Shown here: piece after piece, positions 1,873 to 22,837 of the stretch
Layout: every line of letters begins with the position of its first letter
How positions within the stretch are numbered: position 1 is the first letter of the stretch
Source of the DNA: Roseococcus microcysteis
Lineage (GTDB): Bacteria; Pseudomonadota; Alphaproteobacteria; Acetobacterales; Acetobacteraceae
Length of the DNA: 64,000 nucleotides
Direction of reading: 5' to 3'
Assembly (NCBI RefSeq): GCF_014764365.1
Contig: NZ_CP061718.1
Coordinates: 1,116,001-1,180,000, forward strand
Translations under genes and position numbers: made by a program
The notes under the pieces: model-generated
Databases searched by the model: none
Seen by the model: the letters and a program-made list of their open reading frames with translations, nothing else
What the model was told of the DNA's origin: nothing

Positions 1873-2090
1873 GGGTGCGCCCTGGCAGGGGCTGCCGCCC
1901 CCGCCAGACCACCCCCGCCAGGGGCCATGGGCCCCTGACCCCATGTGTGATGGCCATTTGCAGGGAGGGGCATGACGTGTCCGTGATCACGGGCGCGCCC
2001 CTGACGCCCCTCCCTGCAAATGGCCATGAGACGGGTTCCGAGGGCCTGGGCCCTCGGCGGGAGGGGTCCGGGGAGGGCGGCGCCCTCCCC
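1873..2090 (+). repeat. Five-hairpin intergenic element, copy 1
   Basis: About 218 bases between the convergent M23 and M20 genes, made of consecutive inverted repeats. The first is a GC hairpin near 1886-1905. The second is CAGGGGCC/GGCCCCTG (1919-1926/1930-1937). The third is a perfect 22-base stem, 1950-1971 with 2006-2027, starting ATGGCCATTTGC. The fourth is CCGAGGGCC/GGCCCTCGG (2038-2046/2049-2057). The fifth is GGGGAGGGC/GCCCTCCCC (2070-2078/2082-2090). The whole unit recurs inverted at 20984-21191. None of the stems has a T-tract, so it is not a textbook terminator. No plausible gene lies inside. It could act as a bidirectional transcription barrier, a structured RNA or a REP/BIME-like repeat. 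Confidence 0.8.
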
Positions 2091-2118
2091 GGGACGCACC
2101 CCCTGCCCCATCGCGGCG

Positions 2119-5064: not shown

Positions 5065-8000
5065 GCCCCCGATCCTGCCACGAGCCTGCCCGAAGCGGAA
5101 AGCAGGGCGATGCGCGCCAGCAAGGCCGTGCTGGCGGAAGCCTCCAGCCCCAGCATCCGCGCCACGCCGGCGGCCAGTTCCGCCTCCGTCGCGCGGGGCT
5201 GCAGTTCCAGCAGCAGGCGGGCGGCGGCCTCGATCTCGGCGGGCGGGACCATGGCGGCGCGGCGCAGATGGGGGCTGGCGGCGCGGCGGTCGCGGGGCGT
5301 GGGGGGCGGCGTGTCCTCCAGCACGTAGAACCCGCCCGATTCGCGGGCGCCGTGCAGCAACTCCGCCTCGCGCAGCGCGGCGGCCGTCTCGCGCGCGTCA
5401 AAACCCTCGCCCAGCAGCAGGCGCGCGCGTTCCAGCAGCGCGTCGCGATGGATGGGCGCCTCGATGCGCAGGATGGCGACGACCAGATCGGTCAGCTCCG
5501 CGCGGTTGGTGGGCGCGCGTTCCAGCACCGCCTCGCGATAGGGTTCGGCCAGCGCGGCCCCCACGGGCCCGACAGGGGCGGCCGCGGCCGGCGCCTCCAG
5601 CCCCAGCGCCGCGCGCATCCTGGCCCGCGCCGCCTCGGGCTGGTTCAGCCAGTCGAGCGACCAGGCGCGCGCCAGCCGCCAGCCCATCATCTCCAGCGCC
5701 ATCTGCCGGCCGCGATCACGGTCACGCGCGCAGCGCAGCCCGGCCCAGTCGGCGGCGTCGAGTTCCACGCCGAGTTCGAAGCCCTCGGCCCCCCGACCGG
5801 CCACGTCGAGGAACAACCCCGACAGCCCCACGCGCGGCACCGCCTCCTGCCCCGCCTCGGCCATCACCTGGCCGATCAGCGCGGCGATGGGCGAGGCCTC
5901 GCCCGCCACGATTTCGCGCACCCCGCCATTGGCCGCGAAGCCCAGGAAGGTCTTGAGTGCCGCCACGCCGCGGCCCTTGGCACGCTCCGTGTCCACCTCC
6001 TCCGCGCCGATGCCCGAGAAGACGATGCAGCGCTTCTTGGCCCGCGTGATGAGCACGTTCAGCCGCCGCTCGCCGCCGTCATTGGACAAAGGCCCGAAGC
6101 GCATGGCCAGGCGCCCATTCGCGTCGCGCCCATAGCCCACGCTGATCAGGATGGCGTCGCGTTCGTCGCCCTGCACGTTCTCCAGGTTCTTGATGAAGAA
6201 GGGCTCGTCGGGGTGGGCGTTGAAGAAGGGTTCCGTCTCAGGGCTGTCACGCCGCAGCCGCTCCACCGCGTCCATGATCGCATCGCGCTGCGTGACGGAG
6301 AAGGCGGCGACGCCCAGCGTATCCCCCGGCGTCTCGCGCGCGTGGCGCATCACGGCTTGCGCCACGGCCTCCGCCTCGGCGGCGTTGCCGCTCGCCACGA
6401 AGCGTCCCTCCACCCGCACCAGCGACAGGCCAAGTGCGGCGCTGCGCGGCCGTGGCGAGGGCAGCACCAGCAGCCGGTTCTCGTAGAACTCGGCGTTGGA
6501 GGTCGCGATCAGACTCTCATGCCGGCTGCGGTAGTGCCAGCGCAGCATCATGCGCGGGATGCCGCGCGCATTGGCGAGGCCCAGGATGCTCTCGACGTCG
6601 CGCGCCGCCAGCGCGGCGTCCTCGTCCTGCGGCGCCTCGGCATCGTCCTCGGTCATGCGCTGAAAGAAGCGGGTGGGCGGCATCTGCCGGTCATCGCCCA
6701 CCACCACCACCTGGCGCGCGCGGGCGATGGCGCCCAGCGCGTCCACGGGCTCGATCTGGCTGGCCTCGTCCATCACCAGCAGGTCGAATTCGGGGAAGCC
6801 CGGCAGCGTCGCGTGGTGCGGGTTGCCCAGGAACTGCGCGACCGAGAGCGGGCTCATCATCAGAATGGGCTTGGCCTGGCGGATCAGCGGCGCGGCGCGC
6901 GAGAGCAGGACGCGCACCGGGGCATGGCCGCGCTTTCGCTCGAACTCGCCGCGCAGGAAAGCGAGTGCCGCGGGATGGGCGCCCTGGCGCAGCTCCGCCA
7001 CGCGGGCGGCATGGACGGAGGCCGCCTCGTGCCGCGCAAGCCGCACGCGCGCGGCATCGGCGTGGCGGAAATCGGCCACCAGCCGATCCGCGCCCTCGCC
7101 GTCGAAACCGGCCAGCGCCGGGTGCTCGCGCAAGGCGATACCGCGCAGGGATTCCATCAGCGCGAATTCGAAGGCCTCTGGCGCCGCCTCGGGCAGCAGT
7201 GTGCCGCCCTCCAACGCGCCCGCGAGCGCCGCCAGCTCCGGCGCCGCCGCCACCGCCCGCGCCCAGCCCTGCCACGCCGCCAGCCCCTCGGGCTCCGCGG
7301 CCCAGAGGGCGAGCGTCTCGGCAAGCGCGGCGAAGCTCGGCGGCGCGGCGATGCCCGTCGCGGCGTGCAGCCCCTCCCAGGCTTCCAGCGCCGCGCGCTG
7401 CGCGGCATCCGGCCCGGGCAGGGCCAGGCGCTGGGCATGGGCCTCCATCCAGCCGATCTCGCGCGCCAGGGCGGCGGCGGCCAGTCCGGCGGATTCGGGG
7501 CCATGGCGCAGCCGCAGGGCCGCCGCCTGCGCGGCCAGCAGCGCGTCCAGCGCCGCGCCATCCTCGGGGTCGCGCAGTGCCGCCGCGAGGCGCGCCCTCG
7601 CCTCCCGCCGCGCCCCGTTCAGGAAGCCCAGCATGCCGCCGGGCTGCGCGAGCGTGGCCCGCGCCGCCTCCAGCCCCGTGGCGCCCAAGGCGCCCGAGAG
7701 GAAGCGCGGGTCCCGCCCCGCCGCGTCCAGCAATTGCAGGTCCGCGAGGCGTGCGCGGGCGGCGGGGAGTGTCTCCAGCGGCATGGGGGCCTGGGCACGC
7801 AGCGCCTCGGCCTCCACGGCCGCCCGTGCCTCGGCCACGCCGCCAGGGCAGGCGGCGAAGGCGCGCAGCAGGCGGGGCAGGTCGGCCAGCAGGCGTTCGG
7901 CGGCCAGCGCGTCGAAGTCCGGCCGCACGCCGCGCCAGGGGCTGCGCGCGCCGGGCAATCGCGCCACCAGCTCCGTCACCGCACCGCGCAACGTGGTGAT

Positions 8001-17873: not shown

Positions 17874-20090
17874 GTGTTCTATACCCCCCCGGTGTCCGCA
17901 ACACCGTCCCCCTCCGAATACCTGTCCCGCCTGAACCCGGAGCAGCGTGCCGCCGTCGAAACCCTCGACGGCCCGCTGCTGGTCCTGGCCGGCGCCGGCA
18001 CGGGCAAGACCCGCGTGCTGACCACGCGCTTCGCCCATCTGCTCATGACGGGCCGCGCCCAGCCGCACCAGGTGCTCTCCGTCACCTTCACCAACAAGGC
18101 CGCGCGCGAGATGCGCGAGCGTGTGGGCGCCATCATCGGCCGGCCGGTGGAAGGCCTCTGGCTCGGCACCTTCCATGCGCTCGCCGCCCGGATGCTGCGC
18201 CGCCATGCGGAGTTGGTGGGGCTGAAATCCGACTTCACCATCCTCGACCCCGATGACCAGACGCGGCTGCTCAAGCAGGTGATGGAGGCGGGCGGCGTGG
18301 ACATGAAGCGCTGGCCGGTGGCCGGGCTCATGGGCATCATCCAGCGCTGGAAGGACCGGGGGCTCACGCCGGGGCGCATCCCGGTGGCGGAAAGCTCCGA
18401 CTACGCGAACAACCGCGCGGAAGCCCTCTATGCCGCCTACCAGGCGCGGCTGGTCGCGCTCAACGCCGCGGATTTCGGCGACCTGCTGCTGCACGTGACG
18501 GAAATCCTCCGCACCAACCCCGAGGTGCTGGAACGCTACCACCGCCTCTTCCGCTACATCCTGGTGGACGAATACCAGGACACGAACCTGGTCCAATATC
18601 TCTGGCTGCGGCTGCTCGCGCAGGGGCACAGGAACATCTGCTGCGTGGGCGACGATGACCAGTCCATCTATTCCTGGCGCGGCGCCGAGATCGAGAACAT
18701 CCTGCGCTTCGAGAAGGATTTCCCCGGCGCCGTCATCGTGCGGCTGGAGGCGAATTACCGTTCCTCCCGCCCCATCCTCGCCGCCGCCTCGGGGCTGATC
18801 GCCAAGAACGAAGGGCGCCTTGGCAAGACTTTGCGCCCCGGCCGCGCCGATGCCTCGGGCGAGAAGGTCCGCGTCGTCTCGCTCTGGGACAGCGAGGAGG
18901 AGGCCCGCATGGTGGGCGGCCGCATCGAGGAAGCCCAACGCGCGGGCCAGGACCTGAGCGAAATCGCCATCCTCGTGCGCGCGGGTTTCCAGACGCGCAG
19001 CTTCGAGGAACGCCTCGTCACCCAGGGCATCCCGTACCGCGTCTATGGCGGCGCCAAGTTCTATGAGCGGCAGGAAATCCGCGACGCCATCGCCTATTTC
19101 CGCGCCATGGTGAACCCGGCCGATGATCTGGCCTTCGAGCGCATCGTGAACACCCCGAAGCGCGGCCTGGGCGACACGGCGCTGGCCACGCTGCACCGCG
19201 CCGCGCGCGAACAGGGCGTGCCGCTGCGCATCGCCGCCGGTCAACTCATCCAGACCGACGCGCTCCGCCCCCGCCCCCGCGCCGCCCTGCGCGACCTGCT
19301 GGAAGGCTTCGCGCGCTGGCATGCGGGGCTGGAATCGCTTGGCCACATCGTCGTCGCCTCCCAGATCCTGGAGGAGAGCGGCTATATCGAGATGTGGAAG
19401 CAGGACCGCACGCCCGAGGCGCCGGGCCGCCTCGACAACCTCAAGGAACTGCTCCGCGCCATGGGGGATTTCGGCACCATGGCCGCCTTCCTCGAACACA
19501 TCGCCCTCGTCATGGAGAATGACCAGAACGCGGAGGGCGCCCGCGTTTCGCTCATGACGCTGCACGCGGCCAAGGGCCTCGAATTCGACATGGTCTTCCT
19601 GCCGGGCTGGGAAGAGGGCCTCTTCCCCAGCCAGCGCAGCCTCGATGAGGGCGGCAACAAGAGCCTGGAGGAGGAACGCCGCCTCGCCTATGTCGGCATC
19701 ACCCGCGCGCGGCGGCACTGCATCATCAGCCACGCCGCCAACCGCCGCATCTATGGCAACTGGACCAGCACCATCCCCTCGCGCTTCCTCGACGAATTGC
19801 CGCCGGAGGAGGTGGTGCGCGAGGGCGCCGAGCCCGTCCGCCACATCCCCAGCTCCGTCTTCGGCGCGGGCCCCCTCTCCAGCCAGCGCCGCCCGCGGCT
19901 GATCGAGGCCGGCGCCTGGGAGGTCGCGGCCCGCCCCGCGCGCGAGGGCGGCTTCGCCGCGGGCCAGCGCGTCTTCCACCAGAAATTCGGCTATGGCCGC
20001 GTCATCGCCGTCGAGGATGACAAGCTCGACATCGCATTCGAGAAGGCGGGCCAAAAGCGCGTCCTCGACCGCTTCGTGGACCCCGCATGA
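17874..20090 (+). CDS. uvrD: UvrD/PcrA-type ATP-dependent DNA helicase
   Basis: A 738-residue SF1A 3'-5' helicase for nucleotide-excision and mismatch repair. All motifs are visible: Q motif LNPEQRAAV, Walker A AGAGTGKTR, Ia TFTNKAAREM, II VDEYQDTN, III GDDDQSIYSWRGA, IV EANYRSS, V LHAAKGLEFD and VI RRLAYVGITRARR. The C-terminal tail FHQKFGYGRVIAVEDDKLDI is typical of PcrA/UvrD. The start is GTG at 17874, with a second GTG at 17892; no ATG is suitable. The stop overlaps the prmA start by 4 bases. Confidence 0.92.
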   Translation: MFYTPPVSATPSPSEYLSRLNPEQRAAVETLDGPLLVLAGAGTGKTRVLTTRFAHLLMTGRAQPHQVLSVTFTNKAAREMRERVGAIIGRPVEGLWLGTFHALAARMLRRHAELVGLKSDFTILDPDDQTRLLKQVMEAGGVDMKRWPVAGLMGIIQRWKDRGLTPGRIPVAESSDYANNRAEALYAAYQARLVALNAADFGDLLLHVTEILRTNPEVLERYHRLFRYILVDEYQDTNLVQYLWLRLLAQGHRNICCVGDDDQSIYSWRGAEIENILRFEKDFPGAVIVRLEANYRSSRPILAAASGLIAKNEGRLGKTLRPGRADASGEKVRVVSLWDSEEEARMVGGRIEEAQRAGQDLSEIAILVRAGFQTRSFEERLVTQGIPYRVYGGAKFYERQEIRDAIAYFRAMVNPADDLAFERIVNTPKRGLGDTALATLHRAAREQGVPLRIAAGQLIQTDALRPRPRAALRDLLEGFARWHAGLESLGHIVVASQILEESGYIEMWKQDRTPEAPGRLDNLKELLRAMGDFGTMAAFLEHIALVMENDQNAEGARVSLMTLHAAKGLEFDMVFLPGWEEGLFPSQRSLDEGGNKSLEEERRLAYVGITRARRHCIISHAANRRIYGNWTSTIPSRFLDELPPEEVVREGAEPVRHIPSSVFGAGPLSSQRRPRLIEAGAWEVAARPAREGGFAAGQRVFHQKFGYGRVIAVEDDKLDIAFEKAGQKRVLDRFVDPA

Positions 20091-20974
20091 AACGCCACAT
20101 CCAACCCCTCGAAACCCTCATCCTCGACCAGCTTCCGGACGAGGCGGTGCCGGCCTATGAGGCCGCGCTCCAGGCCGTCAGCGCCACGGTCGCCCTCTTC
20201 CGCGACGAGGCCACCGACACCTGGCGCATCGAGGCGGTGCGCGAGGCGACGGCCGACCAGGATGCGCTGTCCGCCGCGCTGGCGCTCGCCGCCGGCCTCA
20301 CCGGCCATGACGCGACCCTCGCCCGCAACCCCACCGAGGCCGAGGGCTGGCTCGCGCGCACCGTCGAGGCCTTTCCCGAACAGCCCATCGCGACGCGCTT
20401 CCTGGTCCGCCCCTCCCATGCCGAGCAGCGGCGCGTCTGGGGGCGCCATGTGCTGACGCTGGATGCGGGCCTGGCTTTCGGCTCGGGCGAGCATTCCTCC
20501 ACCCGCGGCTGCCTCACCGCCCTCGAAGCCCTGCGCCTGCCGCCCAATGCCCGCGTGTTGGATTTGGGCGCGGGCAGCGGCATCCTCGCCATGGGCGCGG
20601 CCAAACTGTCCCATGTGCGCGTGCTGGCCAGCGACCTCGACCCCTGGTCGGTGCGCGTGGCCGAGGAGAACGCCATCGCCAACGGGCTGCGCGGGCGCAT
20701 CCGCGCCGTGCTGGCCCTCGGCTGGAACCACCGCGAAATCCACGCCCGCGCGCCCTATGACCTCGTCTTCGCCAACATCCTGGCCCGGCCCCTCTGCGCC
20801 ATGGCCAAGGAATTGGCCCAACACCTGGCCCCGGGCGGCCGCGCCATCCTGGCCGGCCTCCTCGACAGCCAGGTCCGGATGGTCCTCGCCGCGCACCGCC
20901 GCCAAGGCCTCGTCCTGGAACGCCGGATCTCGCTCACCCCCTGGAGCACCCTGGTGCTGCGGCGGAGGGGATAG
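20087..20974 (+). CDS. prmA: Ribosomal protein L11 methyltransferase
   Basis: A 295-residue SAM-dependent methyltransferase. It has an N-terminal substrate-recognition domain, then the PrmA core: LDAGLAFGSGEHSSTRGCL, motif I LDLGAGSGILAMGAAK, ASDLDPWSVRVAEENA, and the amino-acceptor motif FANILARPL. It trimethylates amino groups of L11. It overlaps uvrD by 4 bases, so it is probably translationally coupled, an arrangement seen in other alphaproteobacteria. The second copy of the five-hairpin element begins about 10 bases after its stop. Confidence 0.9.
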   Translation: MKRHIQPLETLILDQLPDEAVPAYEAALQAVSATVALFRDEATDTWRIEAVREATADQDALSAALALAAGLTGHDATLARNPTEAEGWLARTVEAFPEQPIATRFLVRPSHAEQRRVWGRHVLTLDAGLAFGSGEHSSTRGCLTALEALRLPPNARVLDLGAGSGILAMGAAKLSHVRVLASDLDPWSVRVAEENAIANGLRGRIRAVLALGWNHREIHARAPYDLVFANILARPLCAMAKELAQHLAPGGRAILAGLLDSQVRMVLAAHRRQGLVLERRISLTPWSTLVLRRRG

Positions 20975-20983
20975 GGCGCCACT

Positions 20984-21191
20984 GCGGAGGGCGCTGCCCT
21001 CCCCAGACCCCTCCCGCCGAGGGCCTTGGCCCTCGGAACCCGTCTCATGGCCATTTCTGGGGAGGGGCATGGCGTGCCCTTCATCACGGATGCGACCTTG
21101 ATGCCCCTCCCCACAAATGGCCATCACACATGGGGTCAGGGGCCCATGGCCCCTGGCGGGGGTTCGGAGGCGGCAGCCCCCGCCGGCACCC
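20984..21191 (-). repeat. Five-hairpin intergenic element, copy 2 (inverted)
   Basis: Inverted copy of the element at 1873-2090, between the convergent prmA and exonuclease genes and ending directly at the exonuclease stop codon. The stems, in plus-strand order, are 20984-20992/20996-21004, 21017-21025/21028-21036, 21047-21070/21101-21124 (23 of 24 positions paired) and 21137-21144/21148-21155, followed by a GC hairpin near 21157-21185. Relative to copy 1, the long stem differs at neighbouring positions in both arms, so that two base pairs have changed while staying paired. The loop of the long stem is not conserved. Confidence 0.8.
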
Positions 21192-21779
21192 TCAGCGCCG
21201 CCCTTCCCCCGCGTCGCGCAGCAGGGTTCCCAGGAGGTGGGCGTAGCCTTCGGCGTCGTCCAGCGCGATGTGGGAGTGGGGGTATCCGCCGAGCCAGGTG
21301 TCGGGGAAGGATTTGCGGGTGAGGCTGTCGTAGTCCAGCCGCGTGCGGCCGAGGGCGAAGGAGGCGATGTCGAGGCCTCCGCCCAGGAAAAGGGTCTCCG
21401 TGCTGCGCGGCGCGGTCAGCAGGCGCAGGCTGGCGTAGCGGCGCAGGTACCAGTCCACCCAGGCCCCGTCGAAGATGAGGGGGTAGGCCGCGAAGACCGG
21501 CGTGCCGCCCAAACCGCGCACCCAGGCGACGTAGCGGGCGATGGCCTCGGCGGGCGGCAGGCGGTTCGAGAGGGTCGCGGCCCAGGCTTCGGGTTCGGTC
21601 GCCCACCATGCCATCGTGCCCGGGTCGGCGGCGTGGCCGGGGATGGGTTCGAGGTTGAGGGCCAGGTGGGACAGGCGCGCCCCTGTTTCATCACAGGCGA
21701 CGGCAGCCAGGCTGATCATGGAATGGATGCCGGGATCGGGCCCATCCGTCTCGATATCCGTCACCACATGGATCAGCAC
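21192..21779 (-). CDS. DnaQ-like 3'-5' exonuclease/exoribonuclease
   Basis: About 195 residues with the DEDDh exonuclease fold: D and E in VTDIETDGPDPG, D in LIFDGAWVDWYL, and H/D in HSHIALDDAEGYAHLL. It degrades nucleic acid from 3' ends; the exact substrate is unknown. The start is GTG at 21779 (VLIHVVTDIETD), since the frame further upstream is Arg/Gly-rich noise. The stop codon abuts the hairpin element copy 2. Confidence 0.75.
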   Translation of the reverse strand: MLIHVVTDIETDGPDPGIHSMISLAAVACDETGARLSHLALNLEPIPGHAADPGTMAWWATEPEAWAATLSNRLPPAEAIARYVAWVRGLGGTPVFAAYPLIFDGAWVDWYLRRYASLRLLTAPRSTETLFLGGGLDIASFALGRTRLDYDSLTRKSFPDTWLGGYPHSHIALDDAEGYAHLLGTLLRDAGEGRR

Positions 21780-21838
21780 GCGCGCACCTCCGGCAAAGCA
21801 CCACAGTGCCGGGATGGCGGTGTGGCTGGAAGGGGCGA

Positions 21839-22837
21839 TCAAGCCTCCGCGAGAACCTCCTCCAGCGGGCGGCGGACGGAGGGACGGATGTCCGGCCCAT
21901 GCCCGGCCCGCATCAGCATTTGCGGGAATTCGCGCGTGCCCAGCAGCGCGGCGAGCTTCGGGCGCAGCGCCGGCACCTCGATGGGCTGGTTCAGGTAGGA
22001 ATGCTTCAGCCCCGCGGCGGTGAGGGCCAGAATCGCGCGGCTCAGCGCCTCGCCCGCCCGCAGCCAGTCCAGCGGCGTGTCGCCCGGCGTGGTGAGGACG
22101 CCCAGCGCGGGCGAATTCTCGGCCAGCGCCATGTCGTGCGCCGCCTGCCCCGCCCCCATGTCGAAGCGGCGGATGGCCATGGCGCCCACGAAGCTGAGCA
22201 GGTCCGGCATGCCGAAGGCGGCGCCCGACATGCCATCGCGCGAGGCGGCGTGGCGGGACCGCACCCAGGCGGCGAGCTCGCCCCGGAAGCCAGGGTCGGC
22301 CATCTGCGCGCGATCCCCTTCCGCCACGAGTTCCGCGATGGCGTGGCGCTCGGCCGGCGCGGTGCGCCAATGCAGGGTGACGCCCGGCGCCTCGGCCAAG
22401 GGGAGCGGCTGCGCCAAAGCTTCGGTGGTGAAGGCGGCGCGGGTGGTGCGGCGGGCGTGGATCGCGGCCAGCAATTCGGGCCGGTGCGGCGCGCAGGCGG
22501 GGCCGGGCCGGATGCGCGCCAACAGGTCAGGCTCCGCCGGGTCGGGCAGGAGGGTGACATCCAGCCCCTGCCCCAGCGCCTCCGCCGCCACGCGCAGATG
22601 GCCGAGTGCGGCGCCGCAGGAGATGACCAGCGCCCGGTCCTCGGGGTCCACCACCGGCAGGGCGCGGCTGCGGTCGGCCAGCAGGTCCAGCCGATCGGCG
22701 CCCAGGCGGAACCGCCAGGGCTGGGTGTTGTGCGAGGAGGGGGCCAGGATGGCATGGCCCGCCAGCACAAGCAGCCGGGCCCGCGGCGTGGCGAGGCCGG
22801 CGAAACCATCGGCGGAGAGGGTCCAGGGATCATTCAT
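21839..22837 (-). CDS. Nitroreductase-family protein (Acg-like)
   Basis: A 332-residue FMN-dependent oxidoreductase-fold protein. LVLAGHAILAPSSHNTQPWRF near residues 24-45 is the FMN-binding start of the nitroreductase superfamily, and HARRTTRAAF lies mid-protein. As in the long Acg/Rv2032-like group, there are two half-repeats and a C-terminal PALRPKLAALLGTREFPQMLMRAG. Acg-like proteins bind flavin but some lack enzymatic turnover. Start ATG at 22837 (MNDPWTL). Divergent from the hydrolase at 22908. Confidence 0.75.
   Translation of the reverse strand: MNDPWTLSADGFAGLATPRARLLVLAGHAILAPSSHNTQPWRFRLGADRLDLLADRSRALPVVDPEDRALVISCGAALGHLRVAAEALGQGLDVTLLPDPAEPDLLARIRPGPACAPHRPELLAAIHARRTTRAAFTTEALAQPLPLAEAPGVTLHWRTAPAERHAIAELVAEGDRAQMADPGFRGELAAWVRSRHAASRDGMSGAAFGMPDLLSFVGAMAIRRFDMGAGQAAHDMALAENSPALGVLTTPGDTPLDWLRAGEALSRAILALTAAGLKHSYLNQPIEVPALRPKLAALLGTREFPQMLMRAGHGPDIRPSVRRPLEEVLAEA

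What the first reader, a model, noticed from the sequence alone, without database searches (positions are those of the whole stretch)
20984..21191. Inverted second copy with compensatory changes in the long stem
The unit recurs in opposite orientation. Compared with copy 1, the stem changed C to T and A to G in one arm and, matching, G to A and T to C in the other, so two base pairs changed while staying paired; one further position is unpaired. Loop sequences are unrelated. Paired change in stems with free loops suggests selection on the fold, or arm-to-arm gene conversion.
Basis: seen in the sequence. Interest (0 to 1): 0.7.

Follow-up and report, generated by a model that had tools for sequence, protein, structure and literature searches.

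The report
Self-flipping palindrome with triple-strand motifs
Beside gene ends in Roseococcus bacteria sit about fourteen 210-letter near-palindromes whose matching letters seem to stay matched largely because the DNA copies and flips pieces of itself, and whose end hairpins follow a three-strand pairing rule, so paired changes there do not by themselves prove a working RNA.

Summary
In detail: copy 2 (window 20983-21189) and copy 1 (1879-2091) differ at three of 22 stem pairs, two changed on both sides and one a C.C mismatch. One claim is wrong: the loops are related but inverted (25/34 identical inverted, 12/34 direct). The element is a ~210-bp nested palindrome directly after stop codons (43 locus groups: 23 convergent, 19 codirectional, 1 divergent). 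It occurs in 24 of 36 genomes searched in this family, 0 of 24 outside. Stem covariation far exceeds a tree-based null, but copying explains much of it. Copy 2's inner cassette is 99% identical to a non-orthologous locus and 82% to its orthologue, while its outer hairpins follow the orthologue. Layers are reversed in 10 of 20 orthologue groups. The terminal hairpins obey a third-strand rule: the spacer is the parallel complement of the purine arm (30 arm types, p<=1e-5; tree null 3.16 against at most 1.76), as in intrastrand triplex motifs; the inner hairpins do not clearly obey it. Best reading: a palindromic triplex-motif DNA element evolving by template switching and interlocus conversion. 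Triplex formation and function are untested.

The parts
20983..21189 (+). Copy 2, whole element (the finding)
   Evidence: Model R1 hit, 206.8 bits
20986..21002 (+). Copy 2 terminal hairpin H1 (decayed: second base of the usual purine arm GGGGAGGGC is C)
   Evidence: Sequence; hairpin call
21008..21016 (+). Copy 2 spacer CCCCTCCCG: candidate third strand, parallel complement of the usual H1 purine arm GGGGAGGGC
21017..21036 (+). Copy 2 hairpin H2
21047..21070 (+). Copy 2 central stem, left arm (one C.C mismatch with the right arm)
21069..21102 (+). Copy 2 loop of 34 nt between GGGGC and GCCCC (its two outermost bases on each side can also pair); inverted relative to copy 1
21101..21124 (+). 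Copy 2 central stem, right arm
21138..21154 (+). Copy 2 hairpin H3
   Evidence: sequence
21169..21184 (+). Copy 2 terminal hairpin H4
   Evidence: sequence
21017..21155 (+). Inner cassette (H2-linker-stem-loop-stem-linker-H3) inferred to be imported by conversion; borders are those set for the comparison, approximate
   Evidence: 99% to non-orthologous L053/L024, 82% to orthologue L098; outer parts 80% and 93%
1879..2091 (-). Copy 1, whole element (inverted second copy)
   Evidence: Model R1 hit, 196.4 bits
1950..1971 (-). Copy 1 central stem arm
1972..2005 (-). Copy 1 loop, 34 nt
2006..2027 (-). Copy 1 central stem arm
2059..2090 (+). Copy 1 perfect class I (purine-motif) intrastrand triplex motif GGGAGGGG-TCC-GGGGAGGG-CGGCG-CCCTCCCC; the only class I hit of my scan in the window (8-nt stem, <=1 third-strand mismatch). 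The other three terminal hairpins of the two copies do not pass it
   Evidence: 1 in window, 0 in each of 10 dinucleotide shuffles
20087..20974 (+). Convergent neighbour, PrmA (ribosomal protein L11 methyltransferase)
   Evidence: Pfam PF06325, E 3.5e-52
21192..22370 (-). Convergent neighbour, ORF of 392 aa, no Pfam match at E 0.001; start not determined

Best explanation
It is one copy of a ~210-bp intergenic DNA element: a nested palindrome of five hairpins (H1-H2-central stem/loop-H3-H4) whose terminal hairpins (H1 and H4), each with its neighbouring spacer, follow the sequence rule of intrastrand triplex motifs; for H2/H3 the rule is not established. SHOWN by comparison: position directly after stop codons; conserved locations among close species; a central stem that is almost always fully paired though its sequence varies; reversed loop, inner part or whole element at orthologous sites; inner cassettes that match other loci better than their own orthologues; third-strand covariation in H1/H4. 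INFERRED: replication forks stall at the palindrome, the nascent strand switches to the other arm (or recombines with another copy), and this copies one arm onto the other (which looks like compensatory change) and flips whatever lies between the arms. INFERRED, weaker: the element persists because a DNA structure at gene ends (a cruciform or triplex formed behind converging RNA polymerases) is tolerated or useful as a two-sided barrier.
For: Stem: 1656 of 1680 cells Watson-Crick with all four pair types in several columns; tree-based null far exceeded; 126 both-sided against 42 one-sided Fitch events. Copying: copy 2's inner cassette 0.99 to L024/L053, 0.82 to its orthologue, outer parts the reverse (0.80, 0.93); 9 of 37 elements show the same kind of discordance. 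Inversion: L046/L089 element 0.73 direct, 0.94 inverted with flanks in the same order, and none of the other listed elements of the three closest genomes is nearer than 0.61 to that type, so a donor in the other orientation is unlikely; L059/L131 H1/H4 0.67 against 0.99 inverted; L033/L088 inner layers inverted with H1/H4 unmoved; L029/L084 loop alone; 10 of 20 orthologue groups show at least one reversed layer (groups). In 9 of 82 elements the loop is under 16 nt, in several because the arms extend through it. Template switching is reported to cause both arm homogenisation and spacer inversion (PMC8604942, abstract and passages) and compensatory changes (PMC8794818, abstract and one section). 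Triplex rule for H1/H4: parallel complement score 7.90 against shuffled 5.25, z 18.8; type-level p<=1e-5; mutual information 0.294 on the parallel diagonal, 0.061 antiparallel, 0.051 elsewhere, 31 concerted changes. Place: 23 convergent to 1 divergent locus groups, p 3e-6 under 1:1.
Against: The orthologue groups are few and the inversion calls use an identity margin of 0.08 without a permutation test. Some reversals (L028/L082, L077/L099) coincide with imported cassettes, so they need not be in-place flips. Among close orthologues both-sided and one-sided stem differences are equal, 5 and 5 in 366 pairs, so stepwise change also occurs. Of the 24 non-Watson-Crick cells 14 are wobble-type on one strand, which does not exclude RNA pairing. 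The third-strand rule is not established for H2: parallel z 4.9 (6.4 with A-A allowed) but antiparallel z 4.3. In 18 units of other Acetobacteraceae/Rhodospirillales and 17 of other taxa it is not significant (z 1.3 and 1.5). At the fixed register A of the arm meets C in 19 of 70 cases, and arm and third base change singly 55 times against 31 together. Only one of the four terminal hairpins in the window passes a strict triplex scan. PIT/BoxC triplex motifs of E. coli showed no terminator or promoter activity, and no triplex was seen by in vivo footprinting (PMC4666352).
Confidence: 0.66

Rival explanations
1. A selected RNA: the transcribed 3' end folds into the hairpins (terminator, exonuclease barrier or small RNA), and the stem stays paired by selection on the RNA of both converging genes.
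For: Strong fold, covariation above a tree null, position 3' of genes with median 10 nt from the stop in convergent cases, near absence from divergent junctions; 14 of the 24 unpaired cells are wobble-type on one strand.
Against: No U-tract: 0 of 163 sites after H1, 0 of 163 after H2 and 5 of 164 after the central stem have >=4 T in 8 nt. No Rfam match in the window. Reversals and cassette imports give paired change without RNA selection. Purine-motif triplexes are stated not to form in RNA (PMC4666352).
Confidence: 0.27
2. A non-autonomous transposon (MITE-like) moved and flipped by a transposase or invertase acting on the terminal hairpins.
For: Dispersed full-length copies, few free halves in the own genome (27 of 30 half-model matches lie in the 14 elements), lineage-specific types in G020; inversion is known for Correia elements (passage in PMC10969869).
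Against: Two sites lacking the element keep a remnant of one terminal hairpin and show no clean empty target or target duplication. No Y1/RAYT transposase family PF01797 in the own genome; other transposase families were not searched. Inner layers are reversed while H1/H4 stay (L033/L088, L127/L129), which a transposase acting on the ends does not explain.
Confidence: 0.2
3. The mirror rule reflects a G-quadruplex, or another constraint on G-runs, not a triplex.
For: Copy 1 reads GGGAGGGGTCCGGGGAGGG, which also fits four G-runs.
Against: The positions of A co-vary in register (G to A with C to T 16 times, the reverse 6, G to A with C to A 3), although a quadruplex needs no mirrored interruptions; arms with interrupted G-runs such as GAGAGGGGC/CTCTCCCCA and GGGGAGGAC/CCCCACCTG keep the mirror.
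Confidence: 0.15
4. Shared ancestry and GC-rich composition alone produce the paired changes.
For: Copies are related and very GC-rich (0.71 and 0.75); the trees mix paralogues that exchange sequence, which the nulls do not model.
Against: Tree-based nulls exceeded for the stem and for the third strand; 0 of 200 fold shuffles as stable.
Confidence: 0.04

Closest known systems
Intrastrand triplex motifs / PIT elements / BoxC (TMECO; Holder et al. 2015, PMC4666352)
   Same: Intergenic GC-rich hairpin plus a third, mirror block with GGC, AAT and TAT triads; palindromic pairs of motifs occur; linked there to local instability and deletions that leave hairpins.
   Different: Order on the G-rich strand here is third strand-purine-pyrimidine (class I), not the TMECO order pyrimidine-purine-third (class II). 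Here motifs end a 210-bp nested palindrome with a long central stem, sited at gene ends, with many different arms obeying the rule. The paper reports no bias in strand orientation and its main text does not use the word covariation.
Template-switch evolution of hairpins (Monttinen and Loytynoja 2022, PMC8794818; Abraham and Hazkani-Covo 2021, PMC8604942)
   Same: Arm homogenisation that looks like compensatory mutation, and inversion of the sequence between the arms.
   Different: There loop inversions with compensatory change were 'extremely rare' and inverted loops typically 4 nt (rRNA), or spacers short (yeast genes). Here 34-nt loops and whole ~200-bp elements are reversed, and cassettes also move between loci.
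Small hairpin-loop inversions of chloroplast intergenic regions
   Same: Flip-flop of a loop between inverted arms in non-coding DNA; known to me by recall, with a search listing of papers on small inversions in plastomes.
   Different: Organelle DNA, single loci; nested layers not recalled.
CIR elements of Caulobacter (Chen and Shapiro 2003)
   Same: Alphaproteobacterial, strictly intergenic repeats (passage in PMC10969869); inverted repeats of >100 bp (recalled).
   Different: CIRs are named for CcrM sites; GANTC occurs in only 22 of 82 of these elements.
Correia repeat enclosed elements of Neisseria
   Same: Dispersed inverted-repeat elements of ~100-150 bp (size recalled) that can undergo inversion (passage in PMC10969869).
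   Different: Correia elements lie immediately upstream of genes and carry promoters (same passage); these sit at gene ends and almost never at divergent junctions.

Membership tests
Intrastrand triplex motif (ITx/PIT, class I) | Three consecutive blocks of 6-15 nt with triads GGC, AAT, TAT and loops of 1-6 nt | tested here: met
   Copy 1 2059-2090 perfect, 0 in 10 shuffled windows; rule holds over 30 H1-type arms as a set. The other three terminal hairpins in the window, including both of copy 2, fail the strict scan.
Intrastrand triplex motif (ITx/PIT, class I) | Third strand changes together with the duplex it would bind (my criterion) | tested here: met
   H1/H4: parallel mutual information 0.294 vs 0.061 and 0.051; tree null 3.16 vs max 1.76 of 500. 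H2/H3: not distinguished from antiparallel.
Intrastrand triplex motif (ITx/PIT, class I) | Physical triplex formation | not testable with these tools
   Needs CD/NMR or chemical probing.
TMECO / BoxC proper | Pattern CCCTCNCCC-N3-6-GGGNGAGGG-N3-GGGNGAGGG | tested here: not met
   Compared by eye: block order differs (class I, not class II); sequences, pattern. No pattern search was run.
Template-switch hairpin evolution | Arm homogenisation together with spacer inversion | tested here: met
   the molecular event itself was not observed.
Intrinsic (Rho-independent) terminator | GC hairpin followed at once by a U-tract | tested here: not met
   0 of 163, 0 of 163, 5 of 164.
REP/RAYT | RAYT (Y1 transposase, PF01797) in the genome | tested here: not met
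   0 matches in the own genome; the control set rings in 5 of 14.
MITE | Clean empty sites with target-site duplication | tested here: inconclusive
   Two absent sites keep hairpin remnants; a third site is rearranged.
CIR (Caulobacter) | CcrM site (GANTC) in the repeat | tested here: not met
   22 of 82 elements have one; 1.43 per kb vs 0.69 in the window.
Structured RNA family (Rfam) | Match to a curated covariance model | tested here: not met
   0 matches at gathering score in the window.

The most novel reading that the evidence does not exclude
The element is a naturally selected DNA triplex/cruciform device at gene ends: its terminal hairpin units keep a third-strand match through some 31 inferred concerted substitutions, which would be evolutionary evidence that intrastrand purine-motif triplexes matter in living bacteria, and its nested palindrome is kept in repair, and flipped, by replication template switching rather than by RNA-level compensatory selection.
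Probability: 0.3. Interest if true: 0.85.

Novelty: new variant of a known kind. Interest (0 to 1): 0.65.

Why it matters
Compensatory base changes are normally taken as the best proof of a functional RNA stem. Here a family with very strong covariation also carries loop inversions and imported cassettes, so the same statistic can arise by copying. Monttinen and Loytynoja (PMC8794818) name compensatory change plus loop inversion as the strongest possible support for template switching and found it extremely rare; this family offers several reversed loops and layers at orthologous sites, and the two window copies themselves differ by both. Separately, whether intrastrand triplexes matter in cells is open (PMC4666352), and third-strand covariation is a kind of evidence that can be extended to other genomes by computation.

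Tried and rejected
First pattern for H3-like hairpins: wrong spacing; of 5 matches only two lay in elements; replaced by covariance model R1. Intrinsic terminator idea: no U-tract. REP/RAYT: no PF01797. CIR/CcrM: GANTC in 22 of 82. Clean insertion site at the PrmA locus: of 23 loci read, the element follows PrmA in G000, G003 and G010; where the others could be read a different sequence follows, so they give no empty site. One search read the seven minus-strand loci on the wrong strand; reread them, six successfully (G004 is cut by the contig end). Two other sites gave remnants. First gene-orientation method (GC3 minus GC2) was misled by antisense frames and replaced by a codon-likelihood caller; its calls for L029/L084, L115, L116 and L124 remain doubtful (long distances or low scores). 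Locus groups were first counted with L104 placed beside L103 because their fetched stretches overlap (42 groups); corrected (43 groups). Mirror rule in other taxa: consistent by eye, not significant. G-quadruplex considered: see rivals. Half-model R2 found almost no free halves, with the caveat that only 150 of 6102 first-look candidates were scored. On checking the draft I lowered the claim for H2/H3 (antiparallel z 4.3 beside parallel 4.9) and the wobble argument (14 of 24 mismatches are wobble-type), and moved confidence from 0.68 to 0.66 and the novel case from 0.33 to 0.30.

Rows dropped: of the elements listed (listing truncated; weaker matches not shown) I used 82 from 11 of the 24 matching genomes; left out were the partial copy of G017, the remnant at G000:174439, and the genomes with weaker matches. 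Searches left out L134 (truncated stem), and one duplicate (80 rows). One search used 150 of 163 halves. One search used H1 arms of >=7 nt (101 distinct). One search found 37 distinct units and scored 35, after leaving out Roseococcus records already used.

Full report
What is there. The window lies in a 4.2-Mb genome of the genus Roseococcus, Acetobacteraceae. The stated 208 bp belong to an element at 20983-21189 that fills the space between the TAG of PrmA and the TGA of a convergent ORF. The second copy lies at 1879-2091 in the other orientation between an M23 peptidase gene and an M20 peptidase gene, also convergent. Folded as RNA, copy 2 with short flanks reaches -150.3 kcal/mol, z -8.1, 0 of 200 shuffles as stable; as DNA z -5.7. 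No Rfam family matches the window at gathering score.

The stem difference is as reported, the loop statement is not. Copies 1 and 2 differ at pairs 11-13 of a 22-pair stem: G-C to C.C, C-G to T-A, A-T to G-C. Their 34-nt loops agree at 12 of 34 positions directly and at 25 of 34 when one is inverted; none of 20,000 shuffles reaches 25. Over the family the loop has a modal length of 34 nt (48 of 82) and lies, relative to the outer arms, forward in 48, reversed in 24, short in 9 and undecided in 1 of 82 elements; its consensus is GTCACGGGCGCGCCCGTGATCACGGGCGCGCCAT (70 loops).

Family. A covariance model from nine own copies finds 15 places in the own genome: 14 elements, one of them lacking its right half, and one remnant; only 150 of 2523 first-look candidates were scored. 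In 60 genomes it matches 24, all within the family (24 of 36), and none of 24 outside it. I analysed 82 listed elements from 11 genomes. Architecture: H1 - spacer - H2 - GGACCC - linker - central stem - loop - stem - linker - GGGTCC - H3 - spacer - H4, so that the right half is a diverged reverse complement of the left half. Falsiroseomonas contigs show the same plan by eye (L141, L159, L185; L185 is labelled Roseomonas ponticola).

Position. By a codon-likelihood gene call, 44 elements lie between convergent genes, 36 between codirectional genes and 2 between divergent ones, with a median of 10 nt from stop codon to element in the convergent cases; a few calls are doubtful. Collapsed to 43 locus groups: 23, 19 and 1. 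Convergent and divergent junctions are equally numerous on a circular chromosome, so 23 to 1 has p = 3e-6. There is no U-tract after the hairpins.

Covariation. In 21 stem columns, 1656 of 1680 cells are Watson-Crick; GT 9, AC 5, other 10. Against a null that re-places the same substitutions on a FastTree tree, the paired fraction is 0.986 against at most 0.560, and summed G 1960 against at most 630 in 300 runs; 12 of the 21 pairs have family-wise p of 0.02 or less; 126 both-sided and 42 one-sided changes are inferred. Stem borders were chosen by complementarity, which inflates the outer pairs, and the tree mixes paralogues that exchange sequence, so these figures show coupling, not its cause. 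Among 17 close orthologue pairs there are 5 both-sided and 5 one-sided differences in 366 base pairs compared.

Cause of the coupling. (a) Import. For copy 2 the inner cassette is 0.99 identical to L053/L024, a different locus, and 0.82 to its orthologue in G010, while its outer hairpins are 0.80 and 0.93. Copy 1's inner cassette is 0.95 to the G010 orthologue of copy 2 and 0.75 to its own best orthologue. In G003 the inner cassettes of the two corresponding copies are 0.96 identical to each other. In all, 9 of 37 elements have an inner cassette closer to a non-orthologous locus. The two changed pairs in the finding were therefore most likely carried in as a block. (b) Inversion. With flanks matched, layers were compared directly and inverted and several were read side by side. 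L046/L089: whole element 0.73 direct, 0.94 inverted; no other listed element of the trio exceeds 0.61 for this type, so an in-place flip is likely. L059/L131: H1/H4 0.67/0.99. L135/L130: H1/H4 0.69/0.95. L033/L088: H2-to-H3 and loop inverted, H1/H4 not. L127/L129: H2/H3 only. L128/L132: H1/H4 only. L029/L084: loop only (all). At a margin of 0.08, 10 of 20 multi-member groups show a reversed layer. (c) In several short-loop elements the loop is replaced by an extension of the arms, for example 28- and 29-bp arms around 0-2 nt in L059, L063 and L094. Arm homogenisation and spacer inversion are the reported footprints of template switching between inverted repeats (PMC8604942: abstract and passages), as is compensatory change (PMC8794818: abstract and the section 'Footprints of CMs'). 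[quoted passage not shown] That switching happens at stalled forks here is inference.

Loss. At the L026 site G003 is shorter by about 185 bp but keeps H4; at the L048 site G010 keeps part of an H1-like hairpin. These look like deletions inside the palindrome. No target duplication was seen; only these two sites were informative, and the third (L097) is rearranged. At the PrmA locus the element is found in G000, G003 and G010; in the other genus members that could be read, different sequence follows PrmA.

Third-strand rule. In the alignment of 39 half-elements the spacer after H1 repeats, base by base and in parallel, the complement of the H1 purine arm: GGGGAGGAC/CCCCACCTG, GGGAAGGGC/CCCATCCCG, GGGGAGAGC/CCCCTCTCG, GAGAGGGGC/CTCTCCCCA, GGGAGGGAC/CCCTCCCTG. 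On the other strand this is a mirror repeat around about three bases followed by the hairpin, which is the sequence of a class I intrastrand triplex. Best-register score 7.90 against 5.25 with spacers shuffled, z 18.8; antiparallel z 6.2. With one representative for each of 30 distinct arms, 22.92 against a permuted maximum of 17.88, p <= 1e-5; 20 of 30 arms match their own spacer best or jointly best. With a fixed register, mean mutual information is 0.294 on the parallel diagonal, 0.061 on the antiparallel, 0.051 elsewhere (45 distinct combinations); the sum exceeds all 500 tree-based simulations (3.16 against at most 1.76); arm and third base change on the same branch 31 times and singly 55 times. 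Opposite A in the arm, the fixed register gives T 40, A 10, C 19, G 1 of 70; A is commoner there than opposite G (6 of 241; Fisher p 0.0005), which fits the T-A-T triad of the purine motif, but the 19 C cases do not. For H2 the rule is not established: parallel z 4.9 (6.4 with A-A allowed), antiparallel z 4.3. In 18 units of other Acetobacteraceae/Rhodospirillales and 17 of other taxa it is not significant (z 1.3 and 1.5). In the window, one of the four terminal hairpins passes a strict scan.

Comparison with what is known. Holder et al. 2015 (PMC4666352; abstract, the text part with the end of the Introduction and most of the Methods, two results sections, first part of the discussion, and passages) describe intrastrand triplex motifs in 5246 genomes and plasmids, a class II motif in E. 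coli (BoxC, PIT, TMECO), local instability and deletions at palindromic pairs, no terminator or promoter activity in earlier tests, and no in vivo footprint; they state that purine-motif triplexes do not form in RNA. The present element uses class I order, motifs at both ends of a nested palindrome, and a place at gene ends. Searches of the held library for alphaproteobacterial intergenic palindromes, Roseococcus/Roseomonas/Acetobacteraceae with palindromic or intergenic repeats, and intrastrand triplex/PIT/BoxC (listings of at most 20 titles, of which only PMC4666352 was opened) showed no description of this family; most subscription papers are not in that library.

Verdict. A real, ordered and strongly covarying element; a new variant of the known class of palindromic, triplex-motif intergenic repeats. 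The most interesting part was not in the finding: nested reversals at orthologous sites and a third-strand rule in the terminal hairpins. Function is unknown beyond position; a DNA-structure barrier at gene ends is my best guess and is untested.

Noticed in passing
L097 (G010:C3:288042-288254); G000:279515-300087; G003:C1:102881-123585: The two flanks of a G010 element lie about 20 kb apart in G000 and G003, so a 20-kb gain or loss has its border at or near an element site.
   Followed up: partly
L103 and L104 (G010:C6:3923-4139 and 5170-5386): Two oppositely oriented elements with identical inner cassettes about 1.2 kb apart (start to start) around one segment.
   Followed up: no
   Followed up: partly
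window 21069-21102 and 1972-2005; family loop consensus: The 34-nt loop has a conserved length and a consensus containing a perfect 26-bp palindrome centred on TGATCA; no reason for either is known.
   Followed up: partly
L195 (contig labelled Opitutaceae MAG): Carries a half-element like those of Falsiroseomonas (by eye), which suggests a mis-binned contig.
   Followed up: no
G000:174439-174584 (L052, L265): Remnant with part of the left half and an intact H3/H4, central stem lost.
   Followed up: partly
G020 elements (L062, L111-L124): The 15 elements read from this genome share their own set of H2/H3 hairpin types and, except L112 (both flanks) and partly L118 and L121, have no flank match to the other species, pointing to spread within the lineage.
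   Followed up: partly
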